Shown: one piece after another, positions 9,852 to 33,738 of the stretch
Layout of the letters: every line of letters begins with the position of its first letter
Numbering within the stretch: position 1 is the first letter of the stretch
IMG/VR virus record: IMGVR_UViG_3300042987_001913
Coordinates: 1 to 41,618 of that record
Length of the DNA: 41,618 nt
DNA from: a virus
Reading direction: 5' to 3' (one strand)
The notes under the pieces: generated by a model
Databases searched by the model: none
What the model was told of the DNA's origin: nothing
The model's input: the letters and a program-made list of their open reading frames with translations, nothing else
Position numbers and translations under genes: made by a program

Positions 9852-10294
9852 ATGCAATTACATTTCGTCAAAAGCAGACAGCAAAGCTTCGCCAGCAATG
9901 TCGGGAAATGATGCAAGCAGGCATGGCGATTTCTGACATAGCCGAACAGCTTGGCGTTGTAGTCAGTACCGTCCACAATCACACGCGCGACTTAAAGCGA
10001 ACGAAAAAAACATATTGCGGATGCAAGCCCAAAACCTATAACGACTGGCTTGATCCCGACGACGAGGCTAACGTCCATCAATTTTGGGTACCATCGCCGG
10101 AAGAAATTGCACGAGTTGGTGAGGAGCTACGGAAGCTGCGAAAGCAACGCGAGGAAGAAACGGAGCTGACAATCCAAAAAATGGAGCGACTTGGCGACGA
10201 GCGCCGGTGGGCAAAAGCGGCGGTCAAACGTAATGCGAAAAGTCTAGCTAGGCGTATAGCGTCGAGCAGCGGCCAGCCGGACAGCGGCCAGTAA
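9848..10294 (+). CDS. helix-turn-helix regulatory protein
   Basis: A 148-aa protein whose ATG overlaps the preceding stop (ATGA). Residues about 8-45 form an HTH of the resolvase/sigma-like type: AKLRQQCREMMQAGMAISDI, then AEQLGVVVSTVHNHTRDLKR. The middle has a short Cys pair (YCGCK). The C-terminal half is a charged coiled coil (IARVGEELRKLRKQREEETE). The last 51 bases overlap the convergent integrase gene. It may regulate integrase or the lysogenic state. The HTH is clear; the target is not. Confidence 0.6.
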   Translation: MNAITFRQKQTAKLRQQCREMMQAGMAISDIAEQLGVVVSTVHNHTRDLKRTKKTYCGCKPKTYNDWLDPDDEANVHQFWVPSPEEIARVGEELRKLRKQREEETELTIQKMERLGDERRWAKAAVKRNAKSLARRIASSSGQPDSGQ

Positions 10295-11305
10295 ATGATT
10301 GGAATGCTGATCCAAATGGCCGTATCTTTGCGAGACCATGCGAGTGTCAGTATGTCCCATCAATGCTGACACGGTGGCAATATGGCTGCCGGCCAGTAGC
10401 GACTCAGTCGCAAATGTGTGCCGATAAGCATACAGCGTGAGCCCGTCTGGCAGCTTGAGCCTCTTTCGCAGCCGGCGAAATCGCTGCTCGGCGGTATTTT
10501 TCTTCCAGGGATCGCCATCCGCTGTAGTGAATAAGTGATCTTTGCAGCGACTGGCGAGCAGTATGCGTGTCAGCGTCTGTAGACACGGGTTGAGGTACAC
10601 TTTTAGGTGACGGCCTGTGCGCTTTGCTGTTTTGTGGCTGGCAAAAGCCCAGGCAGTACAATCTGGCAGCACATTAACGCGAGTAACCTCTCGGATTTGC
10701 TGCGGTCGAGCGCCACACTGCATTGCGATTAGAAACAGCCCAAAAGACTTGTCGTCCACGCACTTCATAGTCTCGGTAACCAGCTCGGAGTGTGTGCTGG
10801 AATCGATCGTCACCGCCCGCGGAGGCCCCTCGCTTACCGAGAACGCAAACAGAGGATTCTTGCTTACCCTACCAGTGCCGTGGGCCCAGCGCATCACTCG
10901 CTTAATCGCCGCCGCCGCGTCCCGTCTGGTAGATTGTTTCCAGGTCTTAGGCTCGCCTTGCGTGCCGTTCTTTCGCAGTCTTCCAGGCTTAGGCTCATCG
11001 AGCCACTTGGCCACCATGCCGGGCGTAAGCTCGATCGCGGCCAGGCCATCAGCCGCCGGCAGAAACGCAGCCAGGTAGCCACCCACTTGGTTTAGCTTAC
11101 TCTCTGGCAACAAATGAACATGCTCCTGCAGCCAGGCTTCGGCCAAGACGGCAAATGAAGACCGGTCGCTGATCGACTGCAGATCGAGCATTTGAGCCCA
11201 CTGGGTATGGGCCTTTGTTTCGTCAGGATCGAGGCGAATAAATCGGCCAGCGCCGTCTTTGACGTACCAACAGCCATGAGAAGCACGATAGAAGGGTTTT
11301 CGCAT
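10244..11305 (-). CDS. int: tyrosine-recombinase integrase
   Basis: A 353-aa protein with a CGGAG SD about eight bases before the ATG. The N-terminal part (1-160) holds arm- and core-binding domains, including VRWAHGTGRVSKNPLF-like helices. The catalytic domain has Arg200 (CGARPQQIREV), Lys in the beta-hairpin near 225, Arg295 (LYAYRHTFATE), His318 (ALMGHTDTRMV) and Tyr328 (SQRYGHLDQ). The usual box-II His (H-x-x-R) is Tyr292 here, a variant common in planctomycete-type recombinases by family knowledge. It catalyses integration at attP, which lies about 150 bp upstream of its start. It is transcribed towards the control genes. Confidence 0.92.
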   Translation of the reverse strand: MRKPFYRASHGCWYVKDGAGRFIRLDPDETKAHTQWAQMLDLQSISDRSSFAVLAEAWLQEHVHLLPESKLNQVGGYLAAFLPAADGLAAIELTPGMVAKWLDEPKPGRLRKNGTQGEPKTWKQSTRRDAAAAIKRVMRWAHGTGRVSKNPLFAFSVSEGPPRAVTIDSSTHSELVTETMKCVDDKSFGLFLIAMQCGARPQQIREVTRVNVLPDCTAWAFASHKTAKRTGRHLKVYLNPCLQTLTRILLASRCKDHLFTTADGDPWKKNTAEQRFRRLRKRLKLPDGLTLYAYRHTFATESLLAGSHIATVSALMGHTDTRMVSQRYGHLDQHSNHLLAAVRLAAARRYTPS

Positions 11306-13353: not shown

Positions 13354-14796
13354 CTAGCCTCCTATCTCGCTGGCTGCGCAGCACCTGTCATCGGCAGCCC
13401 AATGGCAGGGAGTTAGCGCACCTTCTTCTGCACCTGCATCGCGCGACAAGGCAATACCTTGGCTTGCCCACCCCCAGACCCCCTCAAGATCAGCTCCATC
13501 AAGATCAAAGACGCAGCCAGAATGATCAACAACGTCGACCTGAGTGCCGATCAACTCAGGCTGCTCGCAAGGAGCCACTTGCACGGTGACCGTAGCTATC
13601 TTTAAGCCAAAGTACGGCAGATCCGCCCCGCTGGATGCCGTTCGCAACGAATCGATGACATACTGAATCTTGGCACCACCACCGCCACCAAAGATGCGAG
13701 GTAATGTTGGCCAGTCGATTTCGGCATACGAGTGACGCACGACGGTTTGCATTCCGCGGTAGCCATCGCTCGACCACTGAACTTCGGTGACCTCCTCGCC
13801 ACAGTGAAACTCTAAAGCGCCGGCGTAGACTGAGCCCCAAGGAGATGCCAACGGTTTGAGCAGCCCGACAAAAGCGTCAGCTATTTCCTCTGCTCGCGCG
13901 GTGCGGTCGGCAGAATTGTCATCCCAACTAAACATGGTGTCTTCAATGGGCCAGGATGTACCAGCCAGGCCACCAGACGATAGACTAGCCTCCTCGACAT
14001 CTGGCTGCTCCAGCCATGGCTGCTCGCCTTTGCCCGGCACTTTCTGAAACGTCACAGACACTTTCGCTGGATAATTCACATTTGCAGGTGATTCGGGTCG
14101 AAAGTCCCACAGCACGCGGCTCTTATTGGCTTCCCGTAGCGCAGACAAGCCGCTCTGCGAATCGCTCAAATGTACGATCGAAAACTCTTCGGTGAGCGGA
14201 TTGAACACCGAAGCACACCCGATTGCTGTCAGCACCTGGTTAATCGCTCGCCACGCTGACATGCCATAGAAATCAAGGTTCTCCGGTGTCGACGTTGCGG
14301 TTATCGCTGCCACTGAAGGTATCGTGCCTGGCAAAAGCGACCACAGATCCTGAATGATTTCGTCCCATGTCCACGGAGTGTCGCTGTTTAGCGTGTCTTG
14401 AACCCATTCACTATCCGTGCCTTTGCGGAAGTTATAGCGTTTGTTGCCGGCGATCCGCTCAAAAACATATCGCCTGTCCGCTAGCACGATCCAGTGAGGG
14501 GGCTTAGATGAGTCTCGTGATACAGCTTCGGTGCGAGTTACATAGTAGTCAGGAAACGTGAGCTTGCCATCTTCATGAGTAATCTCAAGCTCAAGCGGGC
14601 CTGTTAAGTCAATCGCGTGTAGCGACTCGTCGCTCAGCAGAAAATGGGCTTCGCCGTAGGGGCGACCTCGAGGGCATGTCAATCCGTTGACCAGCCCATG
14701 CCATTTCATTGGCCAGTTGTAAGCCGCTGCTGTTTTGGCGATGTGTGCAGGATGTAGCACTCGCTCGCCACCAACTGTCCATATGCGTTCTACCAT
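13354..14796 (-). CDS. tail hub/baseplate-like protein
   Basis: A 480-aa beta-rich protein. It includes LELEITHEDGKLTFPDYYVT and RAINQVLTAIGCASVFNP-type segments, a pattern seen in siphophage tail-hub proteins where small beta barrels surround a helical insert. A Gly-run (IFGGGGGAKIQ) forms a linker near residue 375. The C-terminus ends with paired Cys (DDRCCAAS). Start and upstream stop share one base (TGATG). It follows two small unknown genes after the giant MuF fusion. The family call is weak and rests on position and fold-like pattern. Confidence 0.5.
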   Translation of the reverse strand: MVERIWTVGGERVLHPAHIAKTAAAYNWPMKWHGLVNGLTCPRGRPYGEAHFLLSDESLHAIDLTGPLELEITHEDGKLTFPDYYVTRTEAVSRDSSKPPHWIVLADRRYVFERIAGNKRYNFRKGTDSEWVQDTLNSDTPWTWDEIIQDLWSLLPGTIPSVAAITATSTPENLDFYGMSAWRAINQVLTAIGCASVFNPLTEEFSIVHLSDSQSGLSALREANKSRVLWDFRPESPANVNYPAKVSVTFQKVPGKGEQPWLEQPDVEEASLSSGGLAGTSWPIEDTMFSWDDNSADRTARAEEIADAFVGLLKPLASPWGSVYAGALEFHCGEEVTEVQWSSDGYRGMQTVVRHSYAEIDWPTLPRIFGGGGGAKIQYVIDSLRTASSGADLPYFGLKIATVTVQVAPCEQPELIGTQVDVVDHSGCVFDLDGADLEGVWGWASQGIALSRDAGAEEGALTPCHWAADDRCCAASEIGG

Positions 14797-15137
14797 CAGC
14801 CGTTCTCTAAAAAGTCAGATAGTGCATCCACCTGGTCATCCATGCCGCCTTCAATCTCCCAATCCTCGGCTGGCTCCTCTTCAGATGCAGGAAGTACGTT
14901 TTGAATTGCTAATTCATTAGCCGTGGCGGGCGGCGTGCCAGCTGCCACCAGTCGATCAAACTCAGCAATCGCGTCAGCCACCTTTACCCGCAGGTAAGAC
15001 TCCAGTTCGCCAAGCTGGAACAACTCGGTATGAAGGTCGGGCTGGTCAACCAAAAGCGTGTTCTCAATGATCTGTGCCCATGGATGCTCCAGCGGAGGTA
15101 AGTCCTTGGTTTTTGCAGCTAACTCTTGCCAGTACAT
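14796..15137 (-). CDS. small acidic hypothetical virion-operon protein
   Basis: A 113-aa, strongly acidic protein (ASEEEPAEDWEIEGGMDDQV), helical in its first half (LESYLRVKVADAIAEFDRLV). It starts one base after the preceding stop. I do not recognise the family. Small acidic helical proteins at this site could be chaperones for the hub or tail-tip proteins that follow. Confidence 0.55.
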   Translation of the reverse strand: MYWQELAAKTKDLPPLEHPWAQIIENTLLVDQPDLHTELFQLGELESYLRVKVADAIAEFDRLVAAGTPPATANELAIQNVLPASEEEPAEDWEIEGGMDDQVDALSDFLENG

Positions 15138-15138: not shown

Positions 15139-15372
15139 CTATTGCCCTCGTGTTGCGTCGTACCATGCTTTCAGCACCAACTCAGCCCAGTCTTGTATCT
15201 CTGGAGTTGGGGCCGGTTCGTAGTTGTACATGATGATTCGCCCAAGACTCTCTTGCGGCTGCTGGCCGGATTCAATGAGCTTGAGATTCCTGTGGATGAC
15301 TTGCATTGCCGGATCCTGCGAGCGTTGGAGCAATTCTTCCGTTTTGGCTACTGCCTGCTGCAATGGGTTCAT
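15139..15372 (-). CDS. small hypothetical protein overlapping the end of the MuF fusion
   Basis: A 77-aa helical protein starting MNPLQQAVAKTEELLQRSQD, with GAGGA about ten bases before the ATG. Its first 101 bases overlap the 3' end of the 2447-aa gene in another frame, far more than the usual 4-8 nt here. An internal Met (MQVIHRNLKL, 15303) is an alternative start that reduces the overlap. Either a true overlap or a frameshift near the end of the long gene would explain this. Confidence 0.5.
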   Translation of the reverse strand: MNPLQQAVAKTEELLQRSQDPAMQVIHRNLKLIESGQQPQESLGRIIMYNYEPAPTPEIQDWAELVLKAWYDATRGQ

Positions 15373-18300
15373 GTTTTTTGGCTATCCTCACATTGGGGTG
15401 AGCGGCTGTCGGTATAAACCATTGGGGGCCACCGCCGCTGACATAATGCTGCTGCTTTGGATCGCTCCATGTATCGATTGTTGGTGCGGCTGTAGAAAAT
15501 AGGTAGGTCATGCGATCAAATTTCGCCGTTTTAGTCTCAAATCTCGTTTGCTGCCTCGGCAATATTGGCTGGTTGGGCAGCTGCCACGCGGTCGCACGAT
15601 CGTGTATGCCGAGATCCTGCGGTTTGCTTCCCTCTACGGAAAAATAGCCTCCGCGAAATCCTCCATGTGCCTGCCATTGAACCAGCGTGTCAGGTGGCGG
15701 AATAGTAGGCGGCGGGCCAGCGATCACAGGCTTGGACAGATCTATGCCATCCAACATGCCCTTGTGTCGTTCTGGAGTAAGGGGTTGGAGCCTGCCTGAC
15801 CTGTGATCATAAAACGTCGCTTGGTTCATCAGATAGTGTGCGGCAACATGCTGACGTGCCGCTCGATGCTGCGGGCTATCTCCAACTTGAGCCGCCAATC
15901 GCATAGCCTCCGGTGTTGGCGGTTGACTCCAATGCGGCTGCAAGTGGCTCATGGGCTGCGGTGGAGCCGGCGGAGAGGGTTGACTGGTCTGTTGAATAGG
16001 CTTTGGCGGCGCTGCTGTCTGTGCCTGTTGCGGTGGCTGCTGGGGTTGCGTGGCGGACTGATTTTGATTTGCCCAGCGGTGATGCTGGTTCAGGGTGTAT
16101 GTCACTCCATTGATTACTTTTGTAACACCCGGCACCAGGCTAAGTTTCTTGGGTCCGGTGCTTTCTTTGAGTTTGGCCAGCCTAGCTTCTTTCTCTTTGA
16201 GCGTCTGCTCGTGACGAAATGGCAAGGCTTGCTGCTGTTGCATCTTGGACACATCCACGTGGAAATCCTTGATTTGTTGATCAACATTGGCTGGCAGCTT
16301 GCCAATTTGCCGGGCAGCATATTCGAGCGACTGCAAGGAATCGCCAGATTTATACGTTTGTCCGCTCGGGCCAACTAATTGCAACATGCCGTCCTTCCTG
16401 ACCGATACCGGCATTCCGCGATATTCCGCCACTCGAATGACAGGCTCGCCATACCGACCGTTTTCGGAGTGGGCTTCCTTCGCTTTGGCGATCGCCTGCG
16501 ATAGTGCCTCTGCTGCTGGCTGCCGTTCGTTGAAATGATCACTACCTACGCTCAAAGTAAAGTCTTGACGCTCCTGAAGATGCTGGGCGTCGCGCTCAAA
16601 GTCGCGTTTCTTTGTTTCCAGGGCTGTCAGTGTTTTGCCGGCGTTCGCCAGTGTATCTCCGATGCGAATCTGGTCGCTCTTGTGGCGCGATTGCGACCTG
16701 CGCAACCTTTTGACTTCATCCTCGAGAGACACTCGCTCGAGCATGGCCTCATCGCCTGTGGCCACGGCCACCATTTCCTCTGGGCTAAGCGTATCGGTTT
16801 CCAAGTCCTTCATCGTTCTCGCGCCGCGGCCACGCATATATTGATTGATAAAATTGCTCTTGTTAGCGACGATCTGCCAGAACAGGTTGTCTGCCGAGCC
16901 CTGCTGCACGTACTTGTAAACATCTAGGTCGGTGTTCTTATTGCCAGACCGATAGCCGCGGCCATCGCGCTGCTCAATGAATGCTGGCACATACGGTATG
17001 TCCAGGTGATGGATGGCTTTCAACCGATCTTGGACATTAGTGCCAGTGCCCAGTCGCATGGTCGATCCAAGCATGATGCGAACGTCTCCGCGTTTGGCAG
17101 CCTGCTGGGCTTCTTGCCGTTTGACATCGGTCATGCCGGGATCGCTAAAATCGACAATCTGCTCATTGGGAATACCGGACTCTGTCAGCTTCTTGCGAAT
17201 GTCTTTAAAAATACTGAATCCCGAGTCTGCCACATCTATCGTGAAATCGGACTCATTGTCATCCTCTGCAGGCTTGTCCTTGTCCTTCTTTGACTTCTTT
17301 CTATCATGCACGCCCAGATCGCTAAATATGCACTGACTTTGGCCTGGGTGCTCGTTGTAGATTTTCAGCACATTGCGGATGCACTGGTTTACCTTGCTAT
17401 CAGGATGATCCTCGGCGTGCAGATCTAGCAGGCGCATATCGATCGAGCCAAGCTTGGCATCGTTGCAAACATTGAGCATGTTATCAGCCCCTTTTTCGGC
17501 GCGCCGCCCCTTGCCTTTCATATCCTCGGCGCGTTTGTGGATGCTGTCCATCATTTGCTTGATTGGCTCGCTGACGGGCGAAATAACGACATGATCGTGT
17601 TTGGCCGGTCGTGGAATTGCCGGCTCGCCACTAGGCAGCTTTTGATTGTCGACCAATTGCACATCCATGAACTCGCTGGCCATGTGGCGCAGCTCTGGCA
17701 GATTGATAAACTCGGCAAATCGCGTTGTCGGCGAGACATCGCCATTAAGCTTGAACTCCATTCGCGTGACGGTGTCGCCAAACGTGTCTTTCCAGGCATC
17801 GAAACGATGTAAGCCTCGCTCTTGCAATGTGTCATACTGCAAATATCGCTGCATGTTGAACAGCTCGCCCATGGTGTTGGCGATCGGTGTGCCGGTGGCA
17901 AAGACTACGCCGCGACCCTTATTTTTATTTAGTAGCCAGCGGGTTCTCATCAGCATGTTTGTGGCGCGTTGCGAGCGTCCGCTGGGAATGCCTTTGATGT
18001 CGCCCTGTCGACTGTAGCATGGCAAAGACTTGAATTTATGGGCTTCGTCTACCATGAGCATGTCGATGCCGCTGTTCTCAAAATAGATGTCGTCTTTATC
18101 TTGCTCTGCTAAGGCCGCTTTGAGTTGTGCCTCTAGTTTCTGTTTTTGGTTTTCCAGTCTTTTTACAATGCGGCTGCTTTGCTTTTTCTCTCCCGCGGAA
18201 ACCTTTTCGGATTCTGCGGCTATGATCGACTGAGACAGTTCGTCGATTTCATCTTGAATAAACTTGGCCGAGGTCTCGGGTCGCATTTTCATCGCGTCGA

Positions 18301-21300
18301 GATGATCATGCGTCATAATGACGATGTCATAGTCGCCTGTAGCGATAGCATTCAGTGTCTGCTGGCGTTTGTCCTTGGAAAACATAGTAGCCGTCGACAG
18401 AATCTTGGCGCCAGGATAAAGCGACTGAGCTTCGGCGGTAATTTGCTCGATATTCGCTTTGAGGCAGCAGATGGCTGGCTTTTTAGCGAGCCCAAGACGC
18501 CGCAGCTCCATCGCGGCTGCAATCATGCTGGCAGTTTTGCCGGTGCCCACCTCATGAGCCGCCAGACCTTTGCCGGTCGTGATCACGCGCCAAATAAAAT
18601 CCTTCTGCATCTGGCGTAGCTCGACAGGATCGTCGGTGCCTGGCCATTTGCTGATCATACCAGGCAAAGTCAAATGCGAGCCATCGAAATGGCGTGACAC
18701 TATGTTGTTGTAGTTGTCGTTATAAAACCGATGCAGCTGAGCGCGCCGGTCGTCATCCTCCCACACCCAGTCTTTGAATCTAGCCTTGAGTTCCTCTACT
18801 TTTTCGCGAGCCTTTTCGGTGGCTTCCTGCAACACTGGATGCGTGCCATCTTGCTCGTACGCGCTGCGAATGACTATTGCCTTGCCGTTGAGCGCCGACC
18901 CGAGGATGTCCATAAAGCTGACCGCAATGTCGCCGGCATCATTTTGCACACCCCAGACTTCGCGGTTGGAAGATCGATAGTGCACGCTATTGTTAATTGC
19001 GGTCGCGTACCACTCGTTCAAATTGTCGGCGTAGCGAATGGCAAAATCATCTTCGCGAGCCCCAAGCACATCAGCCGCAAACTGCTTCACAATGCTAGCC
19101 GGCACCCATGGCGATCCAACCTTTACCCCAATATCTTCGGCATCAATGTCTTCTGGCTGATTGGCTTCGAGCGCTTTGACATTCACATCAAAAGCGGGAT
19201 CGCTCGCAGCTGCGACTCGCGCCTCTTGCAGTTTGCGGCGAACATTGCCGCTTAGGTACTCAGCTGACTCCACCCACTTGCCACCGTTGGGCTCGCGGAA
19301 CGCCAGGCCACCGTCGATCAGTTCCGATTCCACTTCCTCGGTGGATTTACCGGTGAGCTGGGAAATGCGATTTACGTCGAGAAAAGCTGATTCGTTGAGC
19401 ACGATGCCGGTAGCGTCGGACACACTCGATGCGGAATCGGCTTTAATGTTGGGTCGGATGGTGTCTCGGCTGAATATGTCAGCTTTGTCTGCCTGTTTGG
19501 TTGTCGAGTTGTATCGCTCAAGCGACAGCAGAAACTTACCCTCCGGATCAAGCTTGAAGCTGTTGCGGTTCTTGGCGTCATGCAGCAATCCGTACTGCCC
19601 AACATATTCGTCATAGGCTCTGTTGAGTTCTGCGCGGGCGCTCTCGATGCCCTCACCAGCTTGCTGGGCTGCGATTAAGCCACGCGCAGCATCACGAATG
19701 GCCATTTGGCCTATAACTCGCTCGCGTTGATCTGCGCTCAAATTAACTGGTGTCAGTGCGCCACCAAAATGCTGATAGATTGCGCCATCTTTGTTGACCA
19801 GCTGGCCTTCAGCGTATTTCTGGTCAGCCTCGATTCGTTGCTGCTGCTCTGGCTTGTCAGCTGCCGGTTCTTTGTCAGCCCAAAATGCACCAGCGGGTAA
19901 ACGATCGATGGCTTCTTGGAGTCTTTGCTCGTAGTCGTCGGTACGAGAGACATTCATCTGGCCCGAGGTGTACATGGAGCCGGTGCGATCGAGCGTGCCC
20001 AAAATCTGATCAGGATGCTCTGCGAAATAGCGATTGACTTGTATCGGGTCGCCGCCAGCAGGATCTGGCACACTGACGATGTCATCCCACTTCGGTGCTG
20101 GTACTCGTTTGCCATCTTCCCAGTGATAGAGCCGTCCGAGAGCATCGACCGTCACGCCGGTGAAACCTGGTTGTTTCGGTTCAGCCTCGCTAGGTGTTTC
20201 TTCGGTGACCGGTGGTATGTCGGGATGCTTTTTCCGCAGGATTAGCATATCGGTGACGACAGATGTCCCTGCGTTTTCTTTGTGCGCGTCGCCAGGGAAT
20301 CGCACTGCAGCCACAAGTTCAGCTTCGGAGTTGATGTAATTCCTGACTTTTGGATCAAGCTTATCCATGGTGCCGGCGCTGGTCAGGTGCATGATTAGGC
20401 CACCTGGCTTGGCCGTATCGACTGAGCGCATGAAATAGTAGTCATGCAGCAGTGGCTTATTACCTTTGTATTTCGGGTCTTTGATGCGTATCTCACCCGA
20501 GAATGGCACATTGGTGCTGACAATATCGTAGAAGTCGTCTGGCGTCTTGAAGTCTTGGAATGGCGAAATCTGTACATTGGCGGACGGATAAAGCTGCTTA
20601 GCGAGGCCTCCCGTCAGCTGATCCATTTCTACAGCAGTTACCGTCGTCTCTTTTGCCAGACTCTCGGGCATCATGCCGATGTAATACCCAGAGCCTACAG
20701 CTGGCTCCAGAAATCGGCCCCCTTTGAAACCCAGACGCTCGGCCATTTTCCAATTGGCGTCCACAATGTCGGGGTGCGTGTAGTGGGCATTGATCGTAGA
20801 CGCGCGGGCACTTTCGTATTCCTTGTCGCCCACTAGGCCACGTAACTCTTCGCGCTCTTTTGCCCACTGGTCATCTCGCCATGAGTAGACAAACAGCTGC
20901 GGAAACTGACCCCAGCCGACATACTTGGATAGCTTTTCTTGCTCTGCTTTCGTGGCGGGCCTGTTTTCAAGCTCCAACGTCTTGAGCGTGCGGATTGCAT
21001 CCACGTTGTCGCGAAATTTGGCCTTTAGGCCAGACTTAAAAAAGTCGCGTCTATCGTAGTGCCAGTTGCCTTCGTTAGTGGGTGGCTTAAGCTTCCTTTT
21101 CGGCTGTTTGACTGCTGGAGGAATAACGGGTGGCTTAGGCTCGACGGCAGGCTGAGAATGAGCTACTCGAGGTGCTGGACCTGCAATTGCGCGAGGCTGC
21201 TGGCCGACCGGTGCCGTTTGCACGATGACTTTTTTGTACGTGACTGCTCCGTTTTCTTCCGAGCGTGTAATGATGCCTTTGTCTAGCAAACTCTGCACTG

Positions 21301-22615
21301 CGCGTCGGTGCCGACCACCCATGAAGATGTCTTGACCAGGCGCGAATGAACGCCCCTCTTTGCCGATTGAGGCAATCACACCGCGCTGGTCGTCGCTCAG
21401 CTTGAGTTTTGATAAATCAACCTCGGAACCAGCTGCAAATTTCTTGCCAGTGGCAATCTCTTTCTTCTGCTCGGCGTTTGCCTTATCAAACTCGGAGGAC
21501 GGGATAAACTCGCCACCCACGTAGGCCTTGCCGGCGATCATGAGCGGATTGCTTTTGGTGTAGCCCGATGGCGCCCTGTAGGCACCCATGCGAACGAGCG
21601 ACATAGCCACAAATCCGACTTTGCCGCGGCTGCCCCAGTCTGGATTGGAATCAAACGGAATATGCGCCAAGCGGTATTCAGGCTGCAGTGGTGGCCTGCC
21701 AGTGCGTAACCACTCTTGAGCTTCTTTGACTCCATCGCGGGCTGCCTGCTCAAGAGTTAGCAGTCTCACAGAGCAGCGGCAGTTGTAGTCCCACGGCGGG
21801 GTGAAATGATCCCACACAGGATCGTCTACACGATACACGTTGGTCCCGTTAAGACCTAGCTTTTCCAATTCTCGATGCGTATGGCGAGCGCGAGCATCAT
21901 GCACTGCCACGTAGGCCTGGTAAGGAAATGTCGCTTTAACCAGCGGATTTTGACGCAGCGTCTCGCGGCCATCGCGGATGGCAGACTGCATGTTAGTCCG
22001 GTAGACGTTTTCAAGGTGGCCTGCGGCTATTGGACTGGTTCCTAGATGCTCCTCGACTCGCTTGCGAAAGCTTCCGAGCGAGGTGCCTTCTATCATGTCG
22101 TCCACTAAAAACTGGCGCATCCGGTCGATCGTGTCTTCGCTCAAACCGCCAGCAATTTCAAATGCCTGTGCCTTGGCAGCTGAACTAGCGGCATCAAACT
22201 GCTCGCGGGTCATAATGCGACGCTCAAGCAATCGCTGCATCGCGTTTTCGATTATCGGTAGCTTCAGCTCCGGCTCGGTATCGAACATCTTAAATAAGCT
22301 GTTGTCTGCTGGCGGAGTCGGAGGAGGTGGCGTGCGGCGAACGGTGGTTTCAAATTCGCGCTGCAGCCAGGCAGGAAACCGCTTGGCCACATCGTCAAAG
22401 CCATACACCCATGCGGATAGCACTGAATCGCTAATGTGCTGTGCCAGCAGAGCATCAAACCGCTGCAGCTGTTCTCGCACTAGCCGCAGTGTCTCGCTTG
22501 GCCAGTAGTGCATTTCTCGGGCATGAATCACCGCCTGTGTGATTTGATCGAGTATTTCATCGGAAATGCCGATCGCACCTACCAATGCCGTGTTTACGAT
22601 TTTATTCAGCTGCAT
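15272..22615 (-). CDS. MuF head protein fused to N6-adenine methylase and SF2 helicase (polyvalent protein)
   Basis: A 2447-aa protein. Residues about 120-300 are a MuF/SPP1 gp7-type head morphogenesis domain: RTNMQSAIRDGRETLRQNPL, then AVHDARARHTHRELE, then the end motif PPWDYNCRCSVRLL. About 560-790 is an N6-adenine methylase with FLEPAVGSGYYIG (motif I, near 638) and STNVPFSG (motif IV, near 702). About 1330-1930 is an SF2/SNF2-like helicase: HEVGTGKTASM (Walker A, near 1357), VDEAHKFK (near 1523) and EQRDGRGYRSGN (motif VI, near 1885). A coiled coil and a Pro/Gln-rich tail follow (about 2180-2270). The methylase-helicase half resembles the P1 DarB class of injected anti-restriction proteins. 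MuF tethering would place it inside the capsid. The domains are clear; delivery and function are inference. Confidence 0.85.
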   Translation of the reverse strand: MQLNKIVNTALVGAIGISDEILDQITQAVIHAREMHYWPSETLRLVREQLQRFDALLAQHISDSVLSAWVYGFDDVAKRFPAWLQREFETTVRRTPPPPTPPADNSLFKMFDTEPELKLPIIENAMQRLLERRIMTREQFDAASSAAKAQAFEIAGGLSEDTIDRMRQFLVDDMIEGTSLGSFRKRVEEHLGTSPIAAGHLENVYRTNMQSAIRDGRETLRQNPLVKATFPYQAYVAVHDARARHTHRELEKLGLNGTNVYRVDDPVWDHFTPPWDYNCRCSVRLLTLEQAARDGVKEAQEWLRTGRPPLQPEYRLAHIPFDSNPDWGSRGKVGFVAMSLVRMGAYRAPSGYTKSNPLMIAGKAYVGGEFIPSSEFDKANAEQKKEIATGKKFAAGSEVDLSKLKLSDDQRGVIASIGKEGRSFAPGQDIFMGGRHRRAVQSLLDKGIITRSEENGAVTYKKVIVQTAPVGQQPRAIAGPAPRVAHSQPAVEPKPPVIPPAVKQPKRKLKPPTNEGNWHYDRRDFFKSGLKAKFRDNVDAIRTLKTLELENRPATKAEQEKLSKYVGWGQFPQLFVYSWRDDQWAKEREELRGLVGDKEYESARASTINAHYTHPDIVDANWKMAERLGFKGGRFLEPAVGSGYYIGMMPESLAKETTVTAVEMDQLTGGLAKQLYPSANVQISPFQDFKTPDDFYDIVSTNVPFSGEIRIKDPKYKGNKPLLHDYYFMRSVDTAKPGGLIMHLTSAGTMDKLDPKVRNYINSEAELVAAVRFPGDAHKENAGTSVVTDMLILRKKHPDIPPVTEETPSEAEPKQPGFTGVTVDALGRLYHWEDGKRVPAPKWDDIVSVPDPAGGDPIQVNRYFAEHPDQILGTLDRTGSMYTSGQMNVSRTDDYEQRLQEAIDRLPAGAFWADKEPAADKPEQQQRIEADQKYAEGQLVNKDGAIYQHFGGALTPVNLSADQRERVIGQMAIRDAARGLIAAQQAGEGIESARAELNRAYDEYVGQYGLLHDAKNRNSFKLDPEGKFLLSLERYNSTTKQADKADIFSRDTIRPNIKADSASSVSDATGIVLNESAFLDVNRISQLTGKSTEEVESELIDGGLAFREPNGGKWVESAEYLSGNVRRKLQEARVAAASDPAFDVNVKALEANQPEDIDAEDIGVKVGSPWVPASIVKQFAADVLGAREDDFAIRYADNLNEWYATAINNSVHYRSSNREVWGVQNDAGDIAVSFMDILGSALNGKAIVIRSAYEQDGTHPVLQEATEKAREKVEELKARFKDWVWEDDDRRAQLHRFYNDNYNNIVSRHFDGSHLTLPGMISKWPGTDDPVELRQMQKDFIWRVITTGKGLAAHEVGTGKTASMIAAAMELRRLGLAKKPAICCLKANIEQITAEAQSLYPGAKILSTATMFSKDKRQQTLNAIATGDYDIVIMTHDHLDAMKMRPETSAKFIQDEIDELSQSIIAAESEKVSAGEKKQSSRIVKRLENQKQKLEAQLKAALAEQDKDDIYFENSGIDMLMVDEAHKFKSLPCYSRQGDIKGIPSGRSQRATNMLMRTRWLLNKNKGRGVVFATGTPIANTMGELFNMQRYLQYDTLQERGLHRFDAWKDTFGDTVTRMEFKLNGDVSPTTRFAEFINLPELRHMASEFMDVQLVDNQKLPSGEPAIPRPAKHDHVVISPVSEPIKQMMDSIHKRAEDMKGKGRRAEKGADNMLNVCNDAKLGSIDMRLLDLHAEDHPDSKVNQCIRNVLKIYNEHPGQSQCIFSDLGVHDRKKSKKDKDKPAEDDNESDFTIDVADSGFSIFKDIRKKLTESGIPNEQIVDFSDPGMTDVKRQEAQQAAKRGDVRIMLGSTMRLGTGTNVQDRLKAIHHLDIPYVPAFIEQRDGRGYRSGNKNTDLDVYKYVQQGSADNLFWQIVANKSNFINQYMRGRGARTMKDLETDTLSPEEMVAVATGDEAMLERVSLEDEVKRLRRSQSRHKSDQIRIGDTLANAGKTLTALETKKRDFERDAQHLQERQDFTLSVGSDHFNERQPAAEALSQAIAKAKEAHSENGRYGEPVIRVAEYRGMPVSVRKDGMLQLVGPSGQTYKSGDSLQSLEYAARQIGKLPANVDQQIKDFHVDVSKMQQQQALPFRHEQTLKEKEARLAKLKESTGPKKLSLVPGVTKVINGVTYTLNQHHRWANQNQSATQPQQPPQQAQTAAPPKPIQQTSQPSPPAPPQPMSHLQPHWSQPPTPEAMRLAAQVGDSPQHRAARQHVAAHYLMNQATFYDHRSGRLQPLTPERHKGMLDGIDLSKPVIAGPPPTIPPPDTLVQWQAHGGFRGGYFSVEGSKPQDLGIHDRATAWQLPNQPILPRQQTRFETKTAKFDRMTYLFSTAAPTIDTWSDPKQQHYVSGGGPQWFIPTAAHPNVRIAKKHEPIAAGSSQNGRIAPTLAGSGNASHPQESQAH

Positions 22616-22623
22616 CGTGCCAC

Positions 22624-22866
22624 TCAGTCTTTAATGTTGAATCCCGGCGGTTTTTGCGCGTTGTCGTTGGTGGTGGTATTGTCGTCGTCGCTTACGAATA
22701 GCTCATGCGGTACGTCGACTACGAGGCCTTGCGCCTGAATATCTGCTACCTGCTTAATCAGCCTTTGCCGAAACTCGGCCTCCTCGGGAGTATCTGGCGT
22801 CTTGGGCTGCTTGCCCTGCATGATCTCGACGAGAATCTTTTCAGCTTTGTCCGTGGGAATGCTCAT
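22624..22866 (-). CDS. small hypothetical protein between the two giant virion proteins
   Basis: An 80-aa protein starting MSIPTDKAEKILVEIMQGK; its ATG overlaps the stop of the portal fusion (ATGA). It is helical, with an acidic, Asn/Thr-rich tail (VSDDDNTTTNDNAQKPPGF). I do not recognise it. Its place between portal and MuF genes suggests a small head-vertex component or a chaperone for one of the giant proteins. Confidence 0.55.
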   Translation of the reverse strand: MSIPTDKAEKILVEIMQGKQPKTPDTPEEAEFRQRLIKQVADIQAQGLVVDVPHELFVSDDDNTTTNDNAQKPPGFNIKD

Positions 22867-25800
22867 GTTTGCCCTTTCGCAATAAAGTCTTGCCATAGTT
22901 TGGGATCATGAATCTGCAGCTGGCCACCATTTTGCTGAGAAGCCACTTTGACGACTCCGTTAGTGGTGTCCCACAATGCAAACTCATCAAAGAATTTACC
23001 ATCTACGGCTTTGGGCACAATTTGCGACACACTTGCATGGCAGTTGCGCAGCATGTCTTCGGGCGGCAACCTGCCAGTTTTCTTGGCCCGTTCGATATTT
23101 CGCTGAATAGCAACCTCGGTTGGGACTGTCACATAATGCCCAATGACTTTCTGCCCAGCTTCTCGCATTTTCTGGACCTTACGCTGCAGCTTGTCTAGGC
23201 CTGAATCTCCGGTGCCGTCGAGCAGTGTGTTGTACTTGCCTTGGCTGCCTTGCTCTTGGATTAGGTTAGCTATGTAGCTAGATTCCTCATGCACATGGCT
23301 GGCCGCTCGATGGTCGTTTGCTTGAACCATTTGTTGATATTCGGGCAGCATTCCCTTAATTGCATCGGAGTCGATATGCACAGTGTTGGCATCGATGGCC
23401 ACATGCCCACCATGCACAATCGAGCTTTTGCCGGACGCCGGCCCGCCGCCTAGCACGTAGGAAACAGGATTCTGTACTGGGGTCTTGCCCTCAAAGTGCT
23501 TGGCAATGATTTGCTGATGCAGCTTTTGTCGCTCGGGTGACCACTGGCCGTCCTTGGTGAACTGCTCCATGGTGTCGAGGCCAGCTGGATTGATCGCTCC
23601 AGGTGATACCGGCACTGGCTTTTTGGCGTCTCCAGTGGGCGGTGGCTGGTTTGGAGGTTGATTGGGTGGCTGCGGCGGCTGAGTAGCTGAAGTGGGCTGC
23701 GGTGCTGCTGATGCCGGTTGTGGCGCAGTAGCTACTGGCTGCGACGTAGGTGGCGCAGACGGCTTCGCGGGCACTTGTGCCGCTGGCTTGGATTGTGATT
23801 GGCTTGTGTTGCTAGCACCGCCACCTCCGCCACCTTTGCTGGTGAATTGACCACCACCTGGTCCTTTGCCCTTGTGCTCGTGGCCTGTCTTGTCAACGCT
23901 CATGCGAGTTGTCTGGCCACAGATAATGTGCCTAGCTACAGACTCGCTGGTGCTGGCATCGTCGTCGCTCAGTTGCCATTCACTTTTCTTTCCGCCGTAA
24001 TCTCGACTAACGCTCATGGCTAGGGCCTCGCTTCCCGCATCGCTCCACTGGTGGTTCTTGTCTTTAGTGACTGTTTCGGGCTCATCGATGAGTTGGCGTA
24101 CCGCCTCCAAGGTGGCGCGCTTGATTGATTCGCGATCCGCTTTTTTGGAAGCTTTGGCCAGCTCTGCGGCTTTAGCTTTGATCGTGTCTGCTACCTGGCC
24201 CCTTAAACCAGCCTCACGCTCAAAATCAGCTAGCGCTGTTCTGGCCGAGTCTCGTTTGTGTAAGTTCTTGTCGACGTTGAGCACATTGCCAGTCTCAGCT
24301 ACGCGCTCCGCTCGCCTCGAAGAACTTACCGCCGCAAAATCATTGGCTTCCTGTGCCAGTGCTTTGGCGATGTATGACTCGAGTTCTACTTCCTGGTCAA
24401 ATGTCGACTCTTCGCTTTCCCAATCGCCAAACAGATCAGTACCAGACTGTGTCACACTGCCAGCCCGCGCCATCTTCTTGGCTGCGGCTTCGATCTCGCG
24501 CGTGCTCCAGTCCTTGCCGTCGTCTTCGCGCTGGGCGATCTTTTTGAACAGCTTGTCCTGCAGATCATGCTTTTTCAGGTGCTTGGCCACTGCGACCGCT
24601 TTGTCTTCGTCTATCCGGCCTTGCGTGACTTCCTGAAATGCTTTTTCGCTTAGGTCGACTAGCTGCGAAGCATCGCTGGCTACTTTGCCGGTTAGCGAAA
24701 TGCCAGCGTCGCGAAAGTGCTCAATGTCGCGGCCAGAGTCGCGCAGGTACTTGGCGGCGTCGAGGGCAGTCCCGCGCCCTTCGGCGATGTTGGCCAGAGC
24801 CCCAACCGCGCGAGCCGTCTTGGCTGTTGGCGCGTCGATATAGCGGACATTAACGGAGTCGGTTCCGGTTCGATTAGCCAGTTCGTAGCGATGATGGCCG
24901 TTGACCACATAGTCCTTACCGCTGTCTGGATCACGCCAGGCGAGCAGCACACCGCCCAGCTCGGGATTCCACTTACTGGTGCCTTTCAGTTCCTCGCCAA
25001 TGCCAGTACCTTTATCAATCCCTTTAACCTTGTATTGAAATCGAGCCGGATCAACCCGCAGAGATTTGACTGGCACCGTATACACATCTTCACGCACCGG
25101 CGCCCGCGGCGTATCGTCCTCACGCCGGCCAGTTCGATGACGACCCTCTGTCAAGCGATTAGACAGCTTTTCAATGAGCGCCTGCTTGGTGGCTGCGCTA
25201 GCCTTGGTACCGTACTCCGCCTTGAGCTTATGCAACTGCGCCACGGTGAGTGTATTCATGTGATCCATGAGTGCCTTCATGGATTCTGGCGAGCGCGATC
25301 GATGGGCTTCGTCTACGCGATCCTTAGCAAGTGCGTAGGCTTCAGCTGTGCCTTTAGGTATGAAACGCCCATTCTTCCCTCGCGGATGGTCCGCTGGTGA
25401 CCACAAGGCCATACGTTTGGCCGATAGGATTTGGTCTAAGTTTTCTTCAGCATGATCGCCGTAAATCGCGGCTAGTAAGTCGGCCATGGCTTCGATGCGA
25501 TCATCATCGAACGCGTATTCGCCACCTTTGTCGTCTGTCTGCGATTCTTCCGGAGTATCCGGCTGTGCCGACATCCGAACGGCTTGCCTAGCGCGAGACA
25601 GCAGGTCCATGAGCTGTGGCTGCTGCTGCGATTGATCCGCCGGCATTTGCGGCATACTAGGCGCCATGCCTGGTTGCTGAAGACCTTGAGGTTGACCATC
25701 CAATCCCGGTAAACCACCAGCATTGGGGTCTCCCTGCTGCGCACCTGGGCCGGCGTTGGACTGCTGTTCCATGGCCTGTTCGGCCAGCGGCTTGTGCTTG

Positions 25801-26933
25801 ATCTCGTAGTCTGGAATCAAGCCAAAATTTAGCAAGCAGAGATTATCAAGCAGCTGCTCTTTCAAATCACAGACAATTTGCACAATCCATTGGTCGAGCG
25901 ACGCATAGAACGAGGCCATAGTGACGCGCTTGCTCGCCCAGGCGTCGCCTTCCTCCTCGGGCACCTCCAGGCCAGCGCGGATTTCTGCATCAAGATCCTT
26001 TGGATATTGCAAGATATGGGCTGGGTTCGAGGTGACAGTGGCTCGTGTTAGTGGCCACTGCTCATTTCCATTTTCGTCGCGCTTCGAGGGCCGAGTTGTT
26101 ACACCACCTGCTACTAACTGTTCAACAATCTGGCGAGCGATCTGTACGTTAGGCACAAATTGCCCATTAACAAGCGTCTCGCCGTCTGGATAACCGAGGT
26201 CGACCCCGCCGTAGGCATCTTTGTGCATAAACAACTGGCGAACGTCTAGGGCTCCACCCATGAACCACTTGCTAGCCCAGGGTGAATAGCAGCCCAGTAG
26301 TGCACTGACGCCGTAATGGTCGCCGTCTTCAGCGTTGAAGTTGTGAAAGAAGCAGTACGGAAACTGCAGATCCACATGGCCCGCATTGGCTTCGGAGTCG
26401 CGAATGCGCGTAATGCGCACGCCCCAAGGTGATTTGTCTGCTAGCAGCAGCCGACAGTCGGTAGCGTGCCTCGGCAGTAGTTTGTCGATCTCAGTTAGTC
26501 CGCTGCTGGAAAGCTTGAGTGTCACTTCACCGGCTGCCCATCCCCAGACTTGAGACCGCAGTAAAGCCGGCAGATAGTAGTTCCAAATCTTTTGCAGTTG
26601 GCGATAAATGAACTGGCCGATCTCGGGGTGAGAGCATCGCACACCTTCGGTCCAGACCTCACCTTCTTTGTAGCCAAACTCAGCTTTGCAAATAGGAGCG
26701 GATCGTTTCGATAGATTGAGCCTGATCTCGGGATCGATCAGCATGGCGTGAATGGTGGCAAACGAGAATGGCGGCAGGTCTCGAGGCTGCCGCAGCATAA
26801 TGTGCGGAATAGCTTGATAGCCGGCGCTAAGCGGATGCTCTCGCTGGACTGCTTGCTGAGCGCTGACAATCAAAGCCTGGCGTTTGGCCGACAGGTCTTT
26901 CTTTTTGGGCGATGCGGCTGCTGCTCTAGGCAT
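22863..26933 (-). CDS. portal protein fused to ParB-like and zeta-toxin-like kinase domains
   Basis: A 1356-aa protein from ATG 26933, overlapping the preceding stop by 8 nt. Residues about 20-400 look like a Mu gp29/DUF935-type portal: EIRLNLSKRSAPICKAEFGY, LHHN-type beta region, then EIRAGLEVPEEEGDAW and LDNLCLLNFG. A Gln/Gly-rich linker follows (about 390-440). About 560-595 is a SAP-like helix pair. About 615-735 is a ParB/Srx-type domain with VNGHHRYELA (677-686). A Pro-rich linker (about 1045-1110) leads to a zeta-type P-loop kinase: LGGGPASGKSSIV (Walker A near 1162-1171), HIDSDAIKGMLPEY, LLDGTGD. A zeta toxin phosphorylates a nucleotide-sugar in known cases; the substrate here is unknown. 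Attached effector domains on a portal are 'polyvalent' architecture. Confidence 0.8.
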   Translation of the reverse strand: MPRAAAASPKKKDLSAKRQALIVSAQQAVQREHPLSAGYQAIPHIMLRQPRDLPPFSFATIHAMLIDPEIRLNLSKRSAPICKAEFGYKEGEVWTEGVRCSHPEIGQFIYRQLQKIWNYYLPALLRSQVWGWAAGEVTLKLSSSGLTEIDKLLPRHATDCRLLLADKSPWGVRITRIRDSEANAGHVDLQFPYCFFHNFNAEDGDHYGVSALLGCYSPWASKWFMGGALDVRQLFMHKDAYGGVDLGYPDGETLVNGQFVPNVQIARQIVEQLVAGGVTTRPSKRDENGNEQWPLTRATVTSNPAHILQYPKDLDAEIRAGLEVPEEEGDAWASKRVTMASFYASLDQWIVQIVCDLKEQLLDNLCLLNFGLIPDYEIKHKPLAEQAMEQQSNAGPGAQQGDPNAGGLPGLDGQPQGLQQPGMAPSMPQMPADQSQQQPQLMDLLSRARQAVRMSAQPDTPEESQTDDKGGEYAFDDDRIEAMADLLAAIYGDHAEENLDQILSAKRMALWSPADHPRGKNGRFIPKGTAEAYALAKDRVDEAHRSRSPESMKALMDHMNTLTVAQLHKLKAEYGTKASAATKQALIEKLSNRLTEGRHRTGRREDDTPRAPVREDVYTVPVKSLRVDPARFQYKVKGIDKGTGIGEELKGTSKWNPELGGVLLAWRDPDSGKDYVVNGHHRYELANRTGTDSVNVRYIDAPTAKTARAVGALANIAEGRGTALDAAKYLRDSGRDIEHFRDAGISLTGKVASDASQLVDLSEKAFQEVTQGRIDEDKAVAVAKHLKKHDLQDKLFKKIAQREDDGKDWSTREIEAAAKKMARAGSVTQSGTDLFGDWESEESTFDQEVELESYIAKALAQEANDFAAVSSSRRAERVAETGNVLNVDKNLHKRDSARTALADFEREAGLRGQVADTIKAKAAELAKASKKADRESIKRATLEAVRQLIDEPETVTKDKNHQWSDAGSEALAMSVSRDYGGKKSEWQLSDDDASTSESVARHIICGQTTRMSVDKTGHEHKGKGPGGGQFTSKGGGGGGASNTSQSQSKPAAQVPAKPSAPPTSQPVATAPQPASAAPQPTSATQPPQPPNQPPNQPPPTGDAKKPVPVSPGAINPAGLDTMEQFTKDGQWSPERQKLHQQIIAKHFEGKTPVQNPVSYVLGGGPASGKSSIVHGGHVAIDANTVHIDSDAIKGMLPEYQQMVQANDHRAASHVHEESSYIANLIQEQGSQGKYNTLLDGTGDSGLDKLQRKVQKMREAGQKVIGHYVTVPTEVAIQRNIERAKKTGRLPPEDMLRNCHASVSQIVPKAVDGKFFDEFALWDTTNGVVKVASQQNGGQLQIHDPKLWQDFIAKGQT

Positions 26934-27435
26934 TTCTATGTTTTTCCTTAGCAATCTGGCTGTCGACATACCGCTTGAGTGCAATGGACCGCGCTTGCTC
27001 TGCCATGGCCTTGCTGCCTGTGGCCAGCAGGGTCAAGTCATGGACCGTTTGGTAGTCCGAATTTGAGTAATTACCCGCGTTCAAAATCTGCTGTGCCTGG
27101 ACGCGATCGATATTGGCCACCAGCGCCACTTTTTGAGATTCCGTAAGCCCGAACGGATCTACGCCGAACCAATGGGCAATATCTGCGTCGATTGCATGTC
27201 TCTTGCGCAGTAGGTCGACGTACAGGCAGATCGCTCGCCATGCCTGCCACGCGCCTGAGAGCGTGACATTTAGTCCACGCCTGGCGAGGTACTGGGCGAC
27301 AGATGTCAAGAACGGCACGTTTGGCTGCAGCGTATTGCCCACGCTGAGCTTGTGCTCGATCTCCCAGTCCAATAGCTTGCGGTGCAACTCCACTGTTGTG
27401 ATTTCGACCGAGCTAACACCATCAGTCAGCAGCAT
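26926..27435 (-). CDS. hypothetical protein upstream of the portal fusion
   Basis: A 169-aa helical protein: LHRKLLDWEIEHKLSVGNTL, then SVAQYLARRGLNVTLSGAWQ, and a basic tail (SQIAKEKHRNA). It starts three bases after the preceding stop and overlaps the portal gene by eight. I do not recognise the family. Its place between tail and portal genes, and its size, could suit a neck or head-tail adaptor protein. Confidence 0.55.
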   Translation of the reverse strand: MLLTDGVSSVEITTVELHRKLLDWEIEHKLSVGNTLQPNVPFLTSVAQYLARRGLNVTLSGAWQAWRAICLYVDLLRKRHAIDADIAHWFGVDPFGLTESQKVALVANIDRVQAQQILNAGNYSNSDYQTVHDLTLLATGSKAMAEQARSIALKRYVDSQIAKEKHRNA

Positions 27436-27438
27436 GGT

Positions 27439-30826: not shown

Positions 30827-30851
30827 GTTTGCCCCCATGCTGCTGTCAAAA

Positions 30852-31367: not shown

Positions 31368-31379
31368 GGCGATTCCCTA

Positions 31380-31772: not shown

Positions 31773-31773
31773 A

Positions 31774-33682: not shown

Positions 33683-33698
33683 AATGTTGAACCCTTAC

Positions 33699-33738
33699 AA
33701 AAAAAGGCCACTGCGCCGGGGCAAGCAGCGTAGTGGCC
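33699..33738 (-). terminator. strong intrinsic terminator after the major capsid gene
   Basis: On the minus strand GGCCACTACGC (33728-33738) pairs with GCGCAGTGGCC (33706-33716), with one mismatch, and is followed directly by seven T. It lies 38 bp after the capsid stop and before the connector gene. It would raise capsid transcript over downstream transcripts, a common arrangement for the most abundant virion protein. Confidence 0.8.

What the first reader, a model, noticed from the sequence alone, without database searches (positions are those of the whole stretch)
15272..22615. MuF-methylase-helicase giant protein as a head-anchored anti-restriction machine
The N-terminal MuF domain (NCRC end motif) is followed by an N6-adenine methylase (FLEPAVGSG, NVPF) and an SF2 helicase (GTGKT, DEAH, EQRDGRGYRSGN). 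DarB of phage P1 is a known methylase-helicase delivered to protect phage DNA from type I restriction. Here that unit is fused to a minor head protein, which would guarantee packaging. At 2447 aa it takes up about 18% of the window.
Basis: partly seen in the sequence, partly recalled or inferred. Interest (0 to 1): 0.7.

Follow-up and report, generated by a model that had tools for sequence, protein, structure and literature searches.

The report
Phage head protein with enzyme-toxin cargo
A bacterial virus known only from metagenome data makes one giant protein that joins a head-anchoring piece, an enzyme pair thought to shield the virus's DNA from bacterial defences, and (missed at first reading) a toxin resembling one that bacteria use against each other, with a likely antidote gene overlapping its end; the parts are known, but this combination appears to be a new arrangement.

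Summary
The gene is real: one intact 2447-codon frame on the minus strand (22615 to 15272). Ntox46 matches the NAD(P)+ glycohydrolase toxin Tse6 (E 1.7e-8). A 77-aa gene overlaps its 3' end; its predicted fold is nearest to Tsi6, Tse6's immunity protein.

In the nearest relatives the same DarB module sits on the portal protein (9 contigs), and Ntox46 plus the small gene sits on a separate MuF (3 near-identical contigs). One other contig (L090) has MuF-DarB without Ntox46. So DarB is cargo that moves between two head proteins, and this gene is a three-part recombinant.

A head-carried antirestriction protein is a reasonable inference but not a new idea (polyvalent proteins, MuF toxins and P1 DarB are published). 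Packaging, methylation and toxicity were not testable here, and MuF may mean few copies (SPP1 gp7: 1-2 per head; P1 DarB: about 45 predicted).

The parts
15272..22615 (-). 2447-aa polyvalent head protein MuF-DarB-Ntox46 (P0001)
   Evidence: open frame; Pfam and PHROGs
21617..22615 (-). MuF minor head domain, residues 1-333 (Pfam core 167-283 with NCRC)
   Evidence: Phage_Mu_F E 1.4e-11; family alignment of 13 MuF proteins, the others at 42-58% identity to the window
21500..21577 (-). cargo adapter 'RAPSGYTKSNPLMIAGKAYVGGEFIP' (residues 347-372), also found between portal and DarB in relatives
   Evidence: pattern matches in L010/L012, L090, L095; blastp of the longer stretch also in L011, L013, L093, L106
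16196..21115 (-). DarB-type module, residues 501-2140: GWGQ (LPD36-like), N6-adenine MTase, SWI2/SNF2-like SF2 helicase
   Evidence: PHROG DarB-like 1489 bits; alignment with 7 phage/plasmid relatives and P1 DarB
20687..20713 (-). MTase motif I FLEPAVGSG (residues 635-643)
20501..20512 (-). MTase motif IV NVPF (residues 702-705); P1 DarB also has NVPF
18533..18547 (-). helicase Walker A GTGKT (residues 1357-1361)
18038..18049 (-). helicase motif II DEAH (residues 1523-1526)
16940..16975 (-). helicase motif VI EQRDGRGYRSGN (residues 1881-1892)
15383..15913 (-). C-terminal Ntox46 domain, residues 2235-2411, Tse6-like NAD(P)+ glycohydrolase toxin
   Evidence: Pfam Ntox46 E 3.7e-9; PDB 4zv0_A/4zv4_C Tse6 E 1.7e-8/2.6e-8
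15139..15372 (-). 77-aa candidate immunity gene overlapping the last 101 bases of the giant gene; Tsi6-like predicted fold
   Evidence: homologue follows Ntox46 in 4 of 4 contigs that have it, not detected elsewhere; fold:
14796..15137 (-). 113-aa acidic gene (P0007); a homologue directly follows DarB in several relatives whichever head protein carries DarB
22863..26984 (-). portal (N-terminal) - ParB-like - zeta toxin fusion, 1373 aa (P0002)
   Evidence: Portal_Mu 8.3e-6, 25.8 bits vs cut-off 23.9, when the first 497 residues are scanned alone; Zeta_toxin 5.1e-26
22624..22896 (-). 90-aa gene overlapping the 3' end of the zeta fusion; homologue follows the zeta gene in L090 (candidate zeta partner)
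38789..40522 (-). terminase large subunit (context: tailed phage)
   Evidence: Terminase_6N 1.2e-29
10244..11305 (-). tyrosine integrase (context: temperate phage)
   Evidence: Phage_integrase 5.3e-14

Best explanation
The protein is a polyvalent head protein of a temperate tailed phage. SHOWN by sequence: MuF (residues 1-333), a cargo adapter, a DarB-type N6-adenine methylase/translocase with all checked catalytic motifs intact (501-2140), and a Tse6-like NAD(P)+ glycohydrolase domain (2235-2411), with a candidate immunity gene overlapping the 3' end. INFERRED: MuF places the protein inside the head at the portal vertex; it enters the cell with the DNA; the methylase/translocase marks or shields the incoming DNA in cis against type I-like restriction, as proposed for P1 DarB; the NADase tail acts in the recipient cell (growth inhibition, lysis-lysogeny bias or competition against non-lysogens, as proposed for MuF toxins); the 77-aa protein protects the producing cell and lysogens that express it. 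SHOWN by comparison: DarB and the toxin-immunity unit are separable cargoes that occur on the portal or on MuF in related phages.
For: Domain hits. Catalytic motifs kept against 7 relatives and P1 DarB, and across the head-carried clade wherever the stretch is held. An independent MuF-DarB contig, L090 (2139 aa; 56% identity over 2091 aligned columns), argues against misassembly. Portal-DarB in 9 of 26 relative contigs with a portal. DarB tree: window+L090 sister (87/89) inside a 100/100 clade with portal-fused rows. Ntox46 to Tse6 E 1.7e-8. The small gene is found in 4 of 4 contigs with Ntox46 and nowhere else in the 260 records searched; its model (pLDDT 92.4) is nearest to Tsi6, VIA Z 10.7, rmsd 2.0 over 73 residues, against 8.1 for the best unrelated row. 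Published precedents: PMC5512222, PMC5576092, PMC12810830, PMC13285283.
Against: No virion, methylation or toxicity data. P1 DarB is only 22-30% identical. SPP1 gp7 is at 1-2 copies per capsid (PMC5576092), which may be too few for DarB-like protection. Portal-borne DarB in relatives cannot be ejected unless it is cut free. Ntox46 lacks the leading K/R of the published motif (F here, Q in L012). The 77-aa protein has no sequence match to Tsi6, its Foldseek E is 1.9-2.2, and helical bundles reach middling Z often (note). Three of the four contigs with the Ntox46/small-gene pair are near-identical. Host unknown.
Confidence: 0.6

Rival explanations
1. Packaging-coupled marking: the DarB module is tethered at the portal vertex (by MuF here, by the portal itself in relatives) and methylates or tracks along DNA as the terminase threads it through, so protection is laid down in the producing cell and ejection of the protein is not needed.
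For: In 9 relative contigs DarB is fused to the portal, a ring protein that stays in the capsid; where the carrier of DarB in the 100/100 sub-clade is identified it is portal or MuF. A SWI2/SNF2-type translocase fits DNA in transit.
Against: P1 Dar proteins are reported to be co-ejected with DNA (PMC12810830). ATP and SAM supply inside a procapsid is unclear. A head protease could free the cargo (a candidate protease/scaffold-like gene, named by eye only, is at 35851-37143). No direct test.
Confidence: 0.17
2. Mainly a weapon: the polymorphic-toxin tail is the selected function and the DarB part is accessory or only helps DNA or protein entry.
For: Ntox46 with its small gene forms a transferable unit; the portal of the same phage also ends in a zeta toxin with its own overlapping small gene; MuF toxins are temperate-phage associated (PMC5576092).
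Against: The DarB motifs are conserved and DarB persists without Ntox46 in L090, L011, L013 and others, so DarB is selected on its own.
Confidence: 0.13
3. Not virion-borne: a cytoplasmic late enzyme in which the MuF domain only docks transiently or is vestigial; the methylase acts on replicating phage DNA.
For: No proteomic evidence; the MuF-borne version is rare (1 of 25 relative MuF contigs).
Against: MuF is full length and conserved (58% identity to L090), and no other MuF homologue was found among the 17 window proteins scanned, so this protein probably also serves as the phage's MuF.
Confidence: 0.07
4. Assembly artefact: two genes joined by misassembly or a frameshift.
For: Metagenome contig; one of only two MuF-DarB contigs seen.
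Against: Intact 2447-codon frame; independent contig L090 has the same MuF-adapter-DarB order.
Confidence: 0.02

Closest known systems
DNA methylase-helicase dyad of polyvalent proteins, archetype phage P1 DarB (PMC5512222)
   Same: N6-adenine MTase with AHYT.P and NVPF, SWI2/SNF2-like SF2 helicase, phage head context
   Different: fused to MuF and to a C-terminal NADase toxin; P1 DarB is 22-30% identical in three pieces and is one of several Dar proteins
MuF polymorphic toxins of temperate phages (PMC5576092)
   Same: N-terminal MuF, C-terminal toxin, small gene immediately downstream, integrase in the genome, portal gene close upstream
   Different: about 1900 residues including a DarB module lie between MuF and toxin; the paper's main text has no hit for Ntox46, methylase or helicase
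Tse6 (Tne1)/Tsi6, T6SS NADase effector-immunity pair (PMC10539506; PDB 4zv0)
   Same: toxin domain homologous (E 1.7e-8); predicted immunity fold similar (Z 10.7)
   Different: delivery platform is a phage head protein, not PAAR/T6SS; immunity protein not similar in sequence; leading K/R of the toxin motif changed
Portal- and MuF-fused effectors (2H, PBECR, Nudix, ART) in PMC5512222 and PMC9503650
   Same: both portal and MuF used as carriers of effector domains
   Different: here one and the same DarB module is seen on either carrier within one phage group; the passages read there do not describe DarB on MuF or portal
MuF-associated NADases (figure legend in PMC13285283)
   Same: NADase toxin domain in a MuF system
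   Different: no DarB module mentioned in the passages read

Membership tests
DarB-type methylase-helicase dyad | gamma-class N6-adenine MTase with TP motif and NPP(Y/F) | tested here: met
   AHYTHP, EPAVGSG, NVPF; second residue of the motif is V, exactly as in P1 DarB, and NVPF or NAPF in 10 of 10 rows of the clade
DarB-type methylase-helicase dyad | SWI2/SNF2-type SF2 helicase C-terminal to the MTase | tested here: met
   GTGKT, DEAH, TGTP, QRDGRGYRSGN; SNF2-rel_dom 9.3e-7
DarB-type methylase-helicase dyad | N-terminal LPD36 with GXGU (U = G, A or S) | tested here: inconclusive
   aligned GWGQ; Q instead of a small residue in 8 of 8 rows of this clade that hold the stretch, GWGG or GWGA in 7 of 7 outer relatives
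DarB-type methylase-helicase dyad | protects phage DNA in cis from type I restriction | not testable with these tools
   needs a plating assay
MuF polymorphic toxin | MuF domain | tested here: met
   Phage_Mu_F 45.5 bits, cut-off 29.6; SPP1 gp7 domain 43.6, cut-off 39.65
MuF polymorphic toxin | C-terminal toxin domain | tested here: met
   Ntox46 37.2 bits, cut-off 25
MuF polymorphic toxin | small ORF under 150 aa directly downstream (candidate immunity) | tested here: met
   77-aa ORF 15139-15372
MuF polymorphic toxin | temperate phage, next to portal | tested here: met
   integrase; Portal_Mu N-terminus of P0002 upstream, one 90-aa gene between
Tse6/Tne1 NADase | sequence homology to the Tse6 toxin domain | tested here: met
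   4zv0_A E 1.7e-8, residues 44-166 of the 177-residue domain
Tse6/Tne1 NADase | [KR]STxxPxxDxx[ST] and Q motif of Ntox46 (PMC3482391) | tested here: inconclusive
   FSTAAPTIDTWS: everything but the leading K/R; Q residues (VQWQ) kept
Tse6/Tne1 NADase | NAD(P)+ hydrolysis | not testable with these tools
   needs an enzyme assay
Tsi6-like immunity | Tsi6 fold | tested here: inconclusive
   three Tsi6 chains at Foldseek ranks 2-4 but E 1.9-2.2; VIA Z 10.7 and 9.7, top of 110 chains aligned; helical-bundle caveat
Tsi6-like immunity | sequence similarity to Tsi6 | tested here: not met
   no PDB hit to E 1; at E 10 only two unrelated chains. So it is called Tsi6-like in fold, not a member of the family
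Virion protein | present in purified particles | not testable with these tools
   mass spectrometry needed

The most novel reading that the evidence does not exclude
In this phage group the portal vertex is a general cargo dock: the portal C-terminus and MuF are interchangeable carriers onto which a DarB module, a DdrB-like ParB region, zeta-like kinases and a Tse6/Tsi6-type toxin-immunity unit are moved, and the DarB module works at the vertex on DNA in transit (during packaging or exit) rather than as a free injected enzyme, while the toxin tail acts in the recipient.
Probability: 0.15. Interest if true: 0.75.

Novelty: new variant of a known kind. Interest (0 to 1): 0.52.

Why it matters
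It joins two published ideas, head-carried antirestriction and phage-carried polymorphic toxins, in one polypeptide, and shows by comparison that the same antirestriction module is passed between two different head proteins. That gives natural swaps with which to ask whether the carrier (portal ring or low-copy MuF) sets dose, and whether such modules act during packaging, after ejection, or both. It also suggests that a T6SS-type NADase toxin with a matching immunity fold is delivered by a phage head.

Tried and rejected
Whole-protein pattern scan of viral contigs with P0001 alone: nothing; an alignment was needed. P0007 as the Ntox46 immunity gene: rejected, because its relatives follow DarB, not Ntox46. 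Catalytic decay of DarB: rejected. Misassembly: rejected on L090. Defence-system filing: NCBIfam and PADLOC hits (DrmD, DpdE, MAD2) lie far below the cut-offs where a cut-off is given, and match single helicase or MTase stretches.

Host: the genome scan gave 80 loci; only one is a close family MuF (L169, 45%, a 5.4-kb contig in a Robiginitomaculum MAG, possibly misbinned); a Planctomycetaceae MAG contig has a 34% partial match. A search of 392 genomes of that MAG's phylum gave 6 with a match, mostly partial. Host left open.

AlphaFold model of the Ntox46 domain failed (pLDDT 39.9) and was not used. PDB searches with MuF and the 77-aa alignment found nothing useful; the DarB core gave only one weak helicase match (INO80, E 7.8e-5). 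tblastn of the toxin domain against 50,697 phage records: no match. tblastn of the whole protein against the same phage records: 265 records, none covering 80% or more; against plasmids: 2083 records, none covering 80% or more. Literature: (MuF + DarB) returned off-topic papers through word-start matching, none, off-topic, three papers; so 'not in print' rests in an open-licence library only.

Limits: pattern scans miss members (L090 was not among the 80 kept in the DarB scan, but came from the MuF scan), so counts are lower bounds. My ORF picker lost the MuF of L112 and L114. The portal and MuF profiles used are specific to this phage group, and several of the other DarB frames are cut at the 5' end.
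Full report
OBSERVATION. The frame is one intact ORF on the minus strand, 22615 to 15272, 2447 aa. Pfam finds Phage_Mu_F 167-283 (E 1.4e-11), helicase families 1331-1891, and Ntox46, 'Bacterial toxin 46', 2278-2399 (E 3.7e-9, above cut-off). PHROGs find DarB-like antirestriction over 490-2190 (1489 bits) and minor head protein over 123-301. The window is a whole IMG/VR record of 41,618 bases with terminase (38789-40522) and integrase (10244-11305), so a temperate tailed phage or a large part of one.

CATALYTIC RESIDUES. Aligned with seven phage or plasmid relatives (33-35% identity) and P1 DarB (22-30%, in three pieces), the window keeps AHYT.P, EPAVGSG, NVPF, GTGKT, DEAH, TGTP and QR.GRG.R.GN. 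P1 DarB also has NVPF. In the close clade (10 rows) the motifs hold wherever the stretch is present, with exchanges such as ETSAG for EPAVG in L095 and L015, NAPF in L106, DESH in L015 and SGTP in L016. The LPD36 GXGU motif of PMC5512222 reads GWGQ here, a departure shared by the 8 clade rows that hold it.

RELATIVES. A DarB alignment (A1) scanned over viral contigs gave 426 pattern stretches, 305 confirmed, 80 kept. The best (42-48%) are L010-L017 and L078. In seven of these nine (L010-L014, L017, L078) DarB is fused to the PORTAL protein, homologous to the N-terminus of the window's P0002 at 43-51%. L015 and the 5'-cut L016 show no portal or MuF of this group. None of the other 71 loci kept showed such a domain on the DarB frame either (E 1e-6; profiles specific to this group, several frames cut). 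A MuF-family scan (A2) gave 264 stretches, 227 confirmed, 80 kept; 27 of the 80 are close (40% or more, L090-L115 and L014). Among them L090 (IMGVR_UViG_3300020201_000022) has MuF-adapter-DarB in one 2139-aa frame, 56% identical to the window over 2091 aligned columns, ending where the window goes on into Ntox46. Merging duplicates from both scans leaves 29 contigs in the table. DarB is on the portal in 9 of 26 contigs with a portal domain (two of the nine cut at the 5' end, one at the 3' end), and on MuF in 1 of 25 contigs with a MuF domain (13 clusters at 90% MuF identity). Ntox46 is on MuF in 3 of 25 (one cluster). A C-terminal extension of 800 residues or more follows the portal domain in 22 of 26; one of 200 or more follows MuF in 5 of 25. 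The MuF of L112 and L114 was lost by my ORF picker. The window is thus unusual in carrying large cargo on both proteins.

ORIGIN OF THE FUSION. In L012, L103 and L104 (near-identical) the layout is portal-DarB (complete only in L012), P0007-like gene, further genes, then MuF-Ntox46 (575-599 aa; MuF 45%, Ntox46 62% identical to the window) and a 78-aa gene. In the window DarB, with the adapter that in L010/L012 and L095 joins portal to DarB, lies between MuF and Ntox46, and the portal carries ParB and zeta instead. The tree of DarB cores puts window and L090 together (87/89) within a 100/100 clade of MuF- and portal-fused rows; a portal-fused row (L095) lies outside, which mildly favours portal-to-MuF. 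Direction is not settled.

TOXIN AND IMMUNITY. The Ntox46 alignment A4 matches Tse6 in PDB 4zv0 and 4zv4 (E 1.7e-8, 2.6e-8). Tse6 is an NAD(P)+ glycohydrolase with the immunity protein Tsi6 (passages of PMC10539506). The published Ntox46 motif [KR]STxxPxxDxx[ST] (PMC3482391) reads FSTAAPTIDTWS here and QSVTAPTIDTWS in L012, so the leading K/R is gone and activity is uncertain. A 77-aa gene (15139-15372) overlaps the last 101 bases of the giant gene and is 44% identical to the 78-aa gene after MuF-Ntox46 in L012 and L103. It occurs in 4 of 4 contigs with Ntox46 (window plus three near-identical ones) and in none of the others among 260 records searched (records include duplicates). Its AlphaFold model (pLDDT 92.4) ranks three Tsi6 chains at places 2-4 of Foldseek, but at E 1.9-2.2; VIA-align gives Tsi6 Z 10.7 and 9.7 (rmsd 2.0 over 73 residues), best of 110 chains, next 8.1. 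The tool warns that helical bundles reach such Z by chance. The independent finding that the neighbouring toxin is Tse6-like makes the match credible. Sequence searches show no relation to Tsi6, so I call it Tsi6-like in fold only.

SECOND HEAD PROTEIN. P0002 is portal (Portal_Mu 25.8 bits, above cut-off, when its first 497 residues are scanned alone), a ParB-like region and zeta toxin (5.1e-26). A 90-aa gene overlaps its 3' end; the homologue in L090 follows a free-standing zeta gene; both occur in 2 of 2 contigs with this zeta and nowhere else in the 260 records. A role as zeta partner is a guess.

HOW IT PROBABLY WORKS. Published: polyvalent proteins and the DarB dyad (PMC5512222, section 14 and passages read), MuF toxins with small downstream genes and SPP1 gp7 at 1-2 copies per capsid (PMC5576092, passages), P1 Dar proteins co-ejected with DNA and DarB predicted at about 45 copies (PMC12810830, passages), MuF or portal fused to ART, Nudix and 2H domains (PMC9503650, passages), and NADases marked as MuF-associated in one figure legend (PMC13285283, passages). 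From these I infer head carriage, cis protection of incoming DNA, and a toxin tail restrained by the 77-aa protein in producing cells. The main rival is action at the portal during packaging, suggested by the portal-borne versions. Low MuF copy number is a real difficulty for the injection reading. No step after the sequence is shown here.

VERDICT. Ordinary in kind (polyvalent MuF protein, published concept), new in combination and in the carrier switch. Host unresolved.

Noticed in passing
window 22863-26984 (-): The portal gene carries a DdrB-like ParB region and a C-terminal zeta toxin, with a 90-aa gene overlapping its 3' end that is conserved next to zeta in L090.
   Followed up: partly
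window 22615-40522 (-); also L090, L091, L098, L102, L113: Unusual gene order: portal and MuF lie after the major head, neck and probable tail genes instead of next to the terminase; the order is shared by relatives.
   Followed up: no
L013 13566-14978; L012 15766-17658; L093 7056-8795; window residues 2169-2181: A short motif like NGxxYxLNxxHRW opens or precedes separate zeta-like kinase genes in relatives and occurs inside the window protein before Ntox46, so it looks like a second recurring junction motif.
   Followed up: partly
L095 9344-11005; L099 8699-11008; L115 4478-9706: MuF with N-terminal extensions (about 220, 435 and 860 residues before MuF) of unknown function.
   Followed up: no
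L016 2-11083: A 3693-aa frame, cut at its start, joins DarB, ParB and a C-terminal region that by eye resembles an ADP-ribosyltransferase.
   Followed up: no
L169 (5.4-kb MAG contig): Only close MuF relative found in a bacterial genome bin (Robiginitomaculum MAG); may be misbinned.
   Followed up: partly
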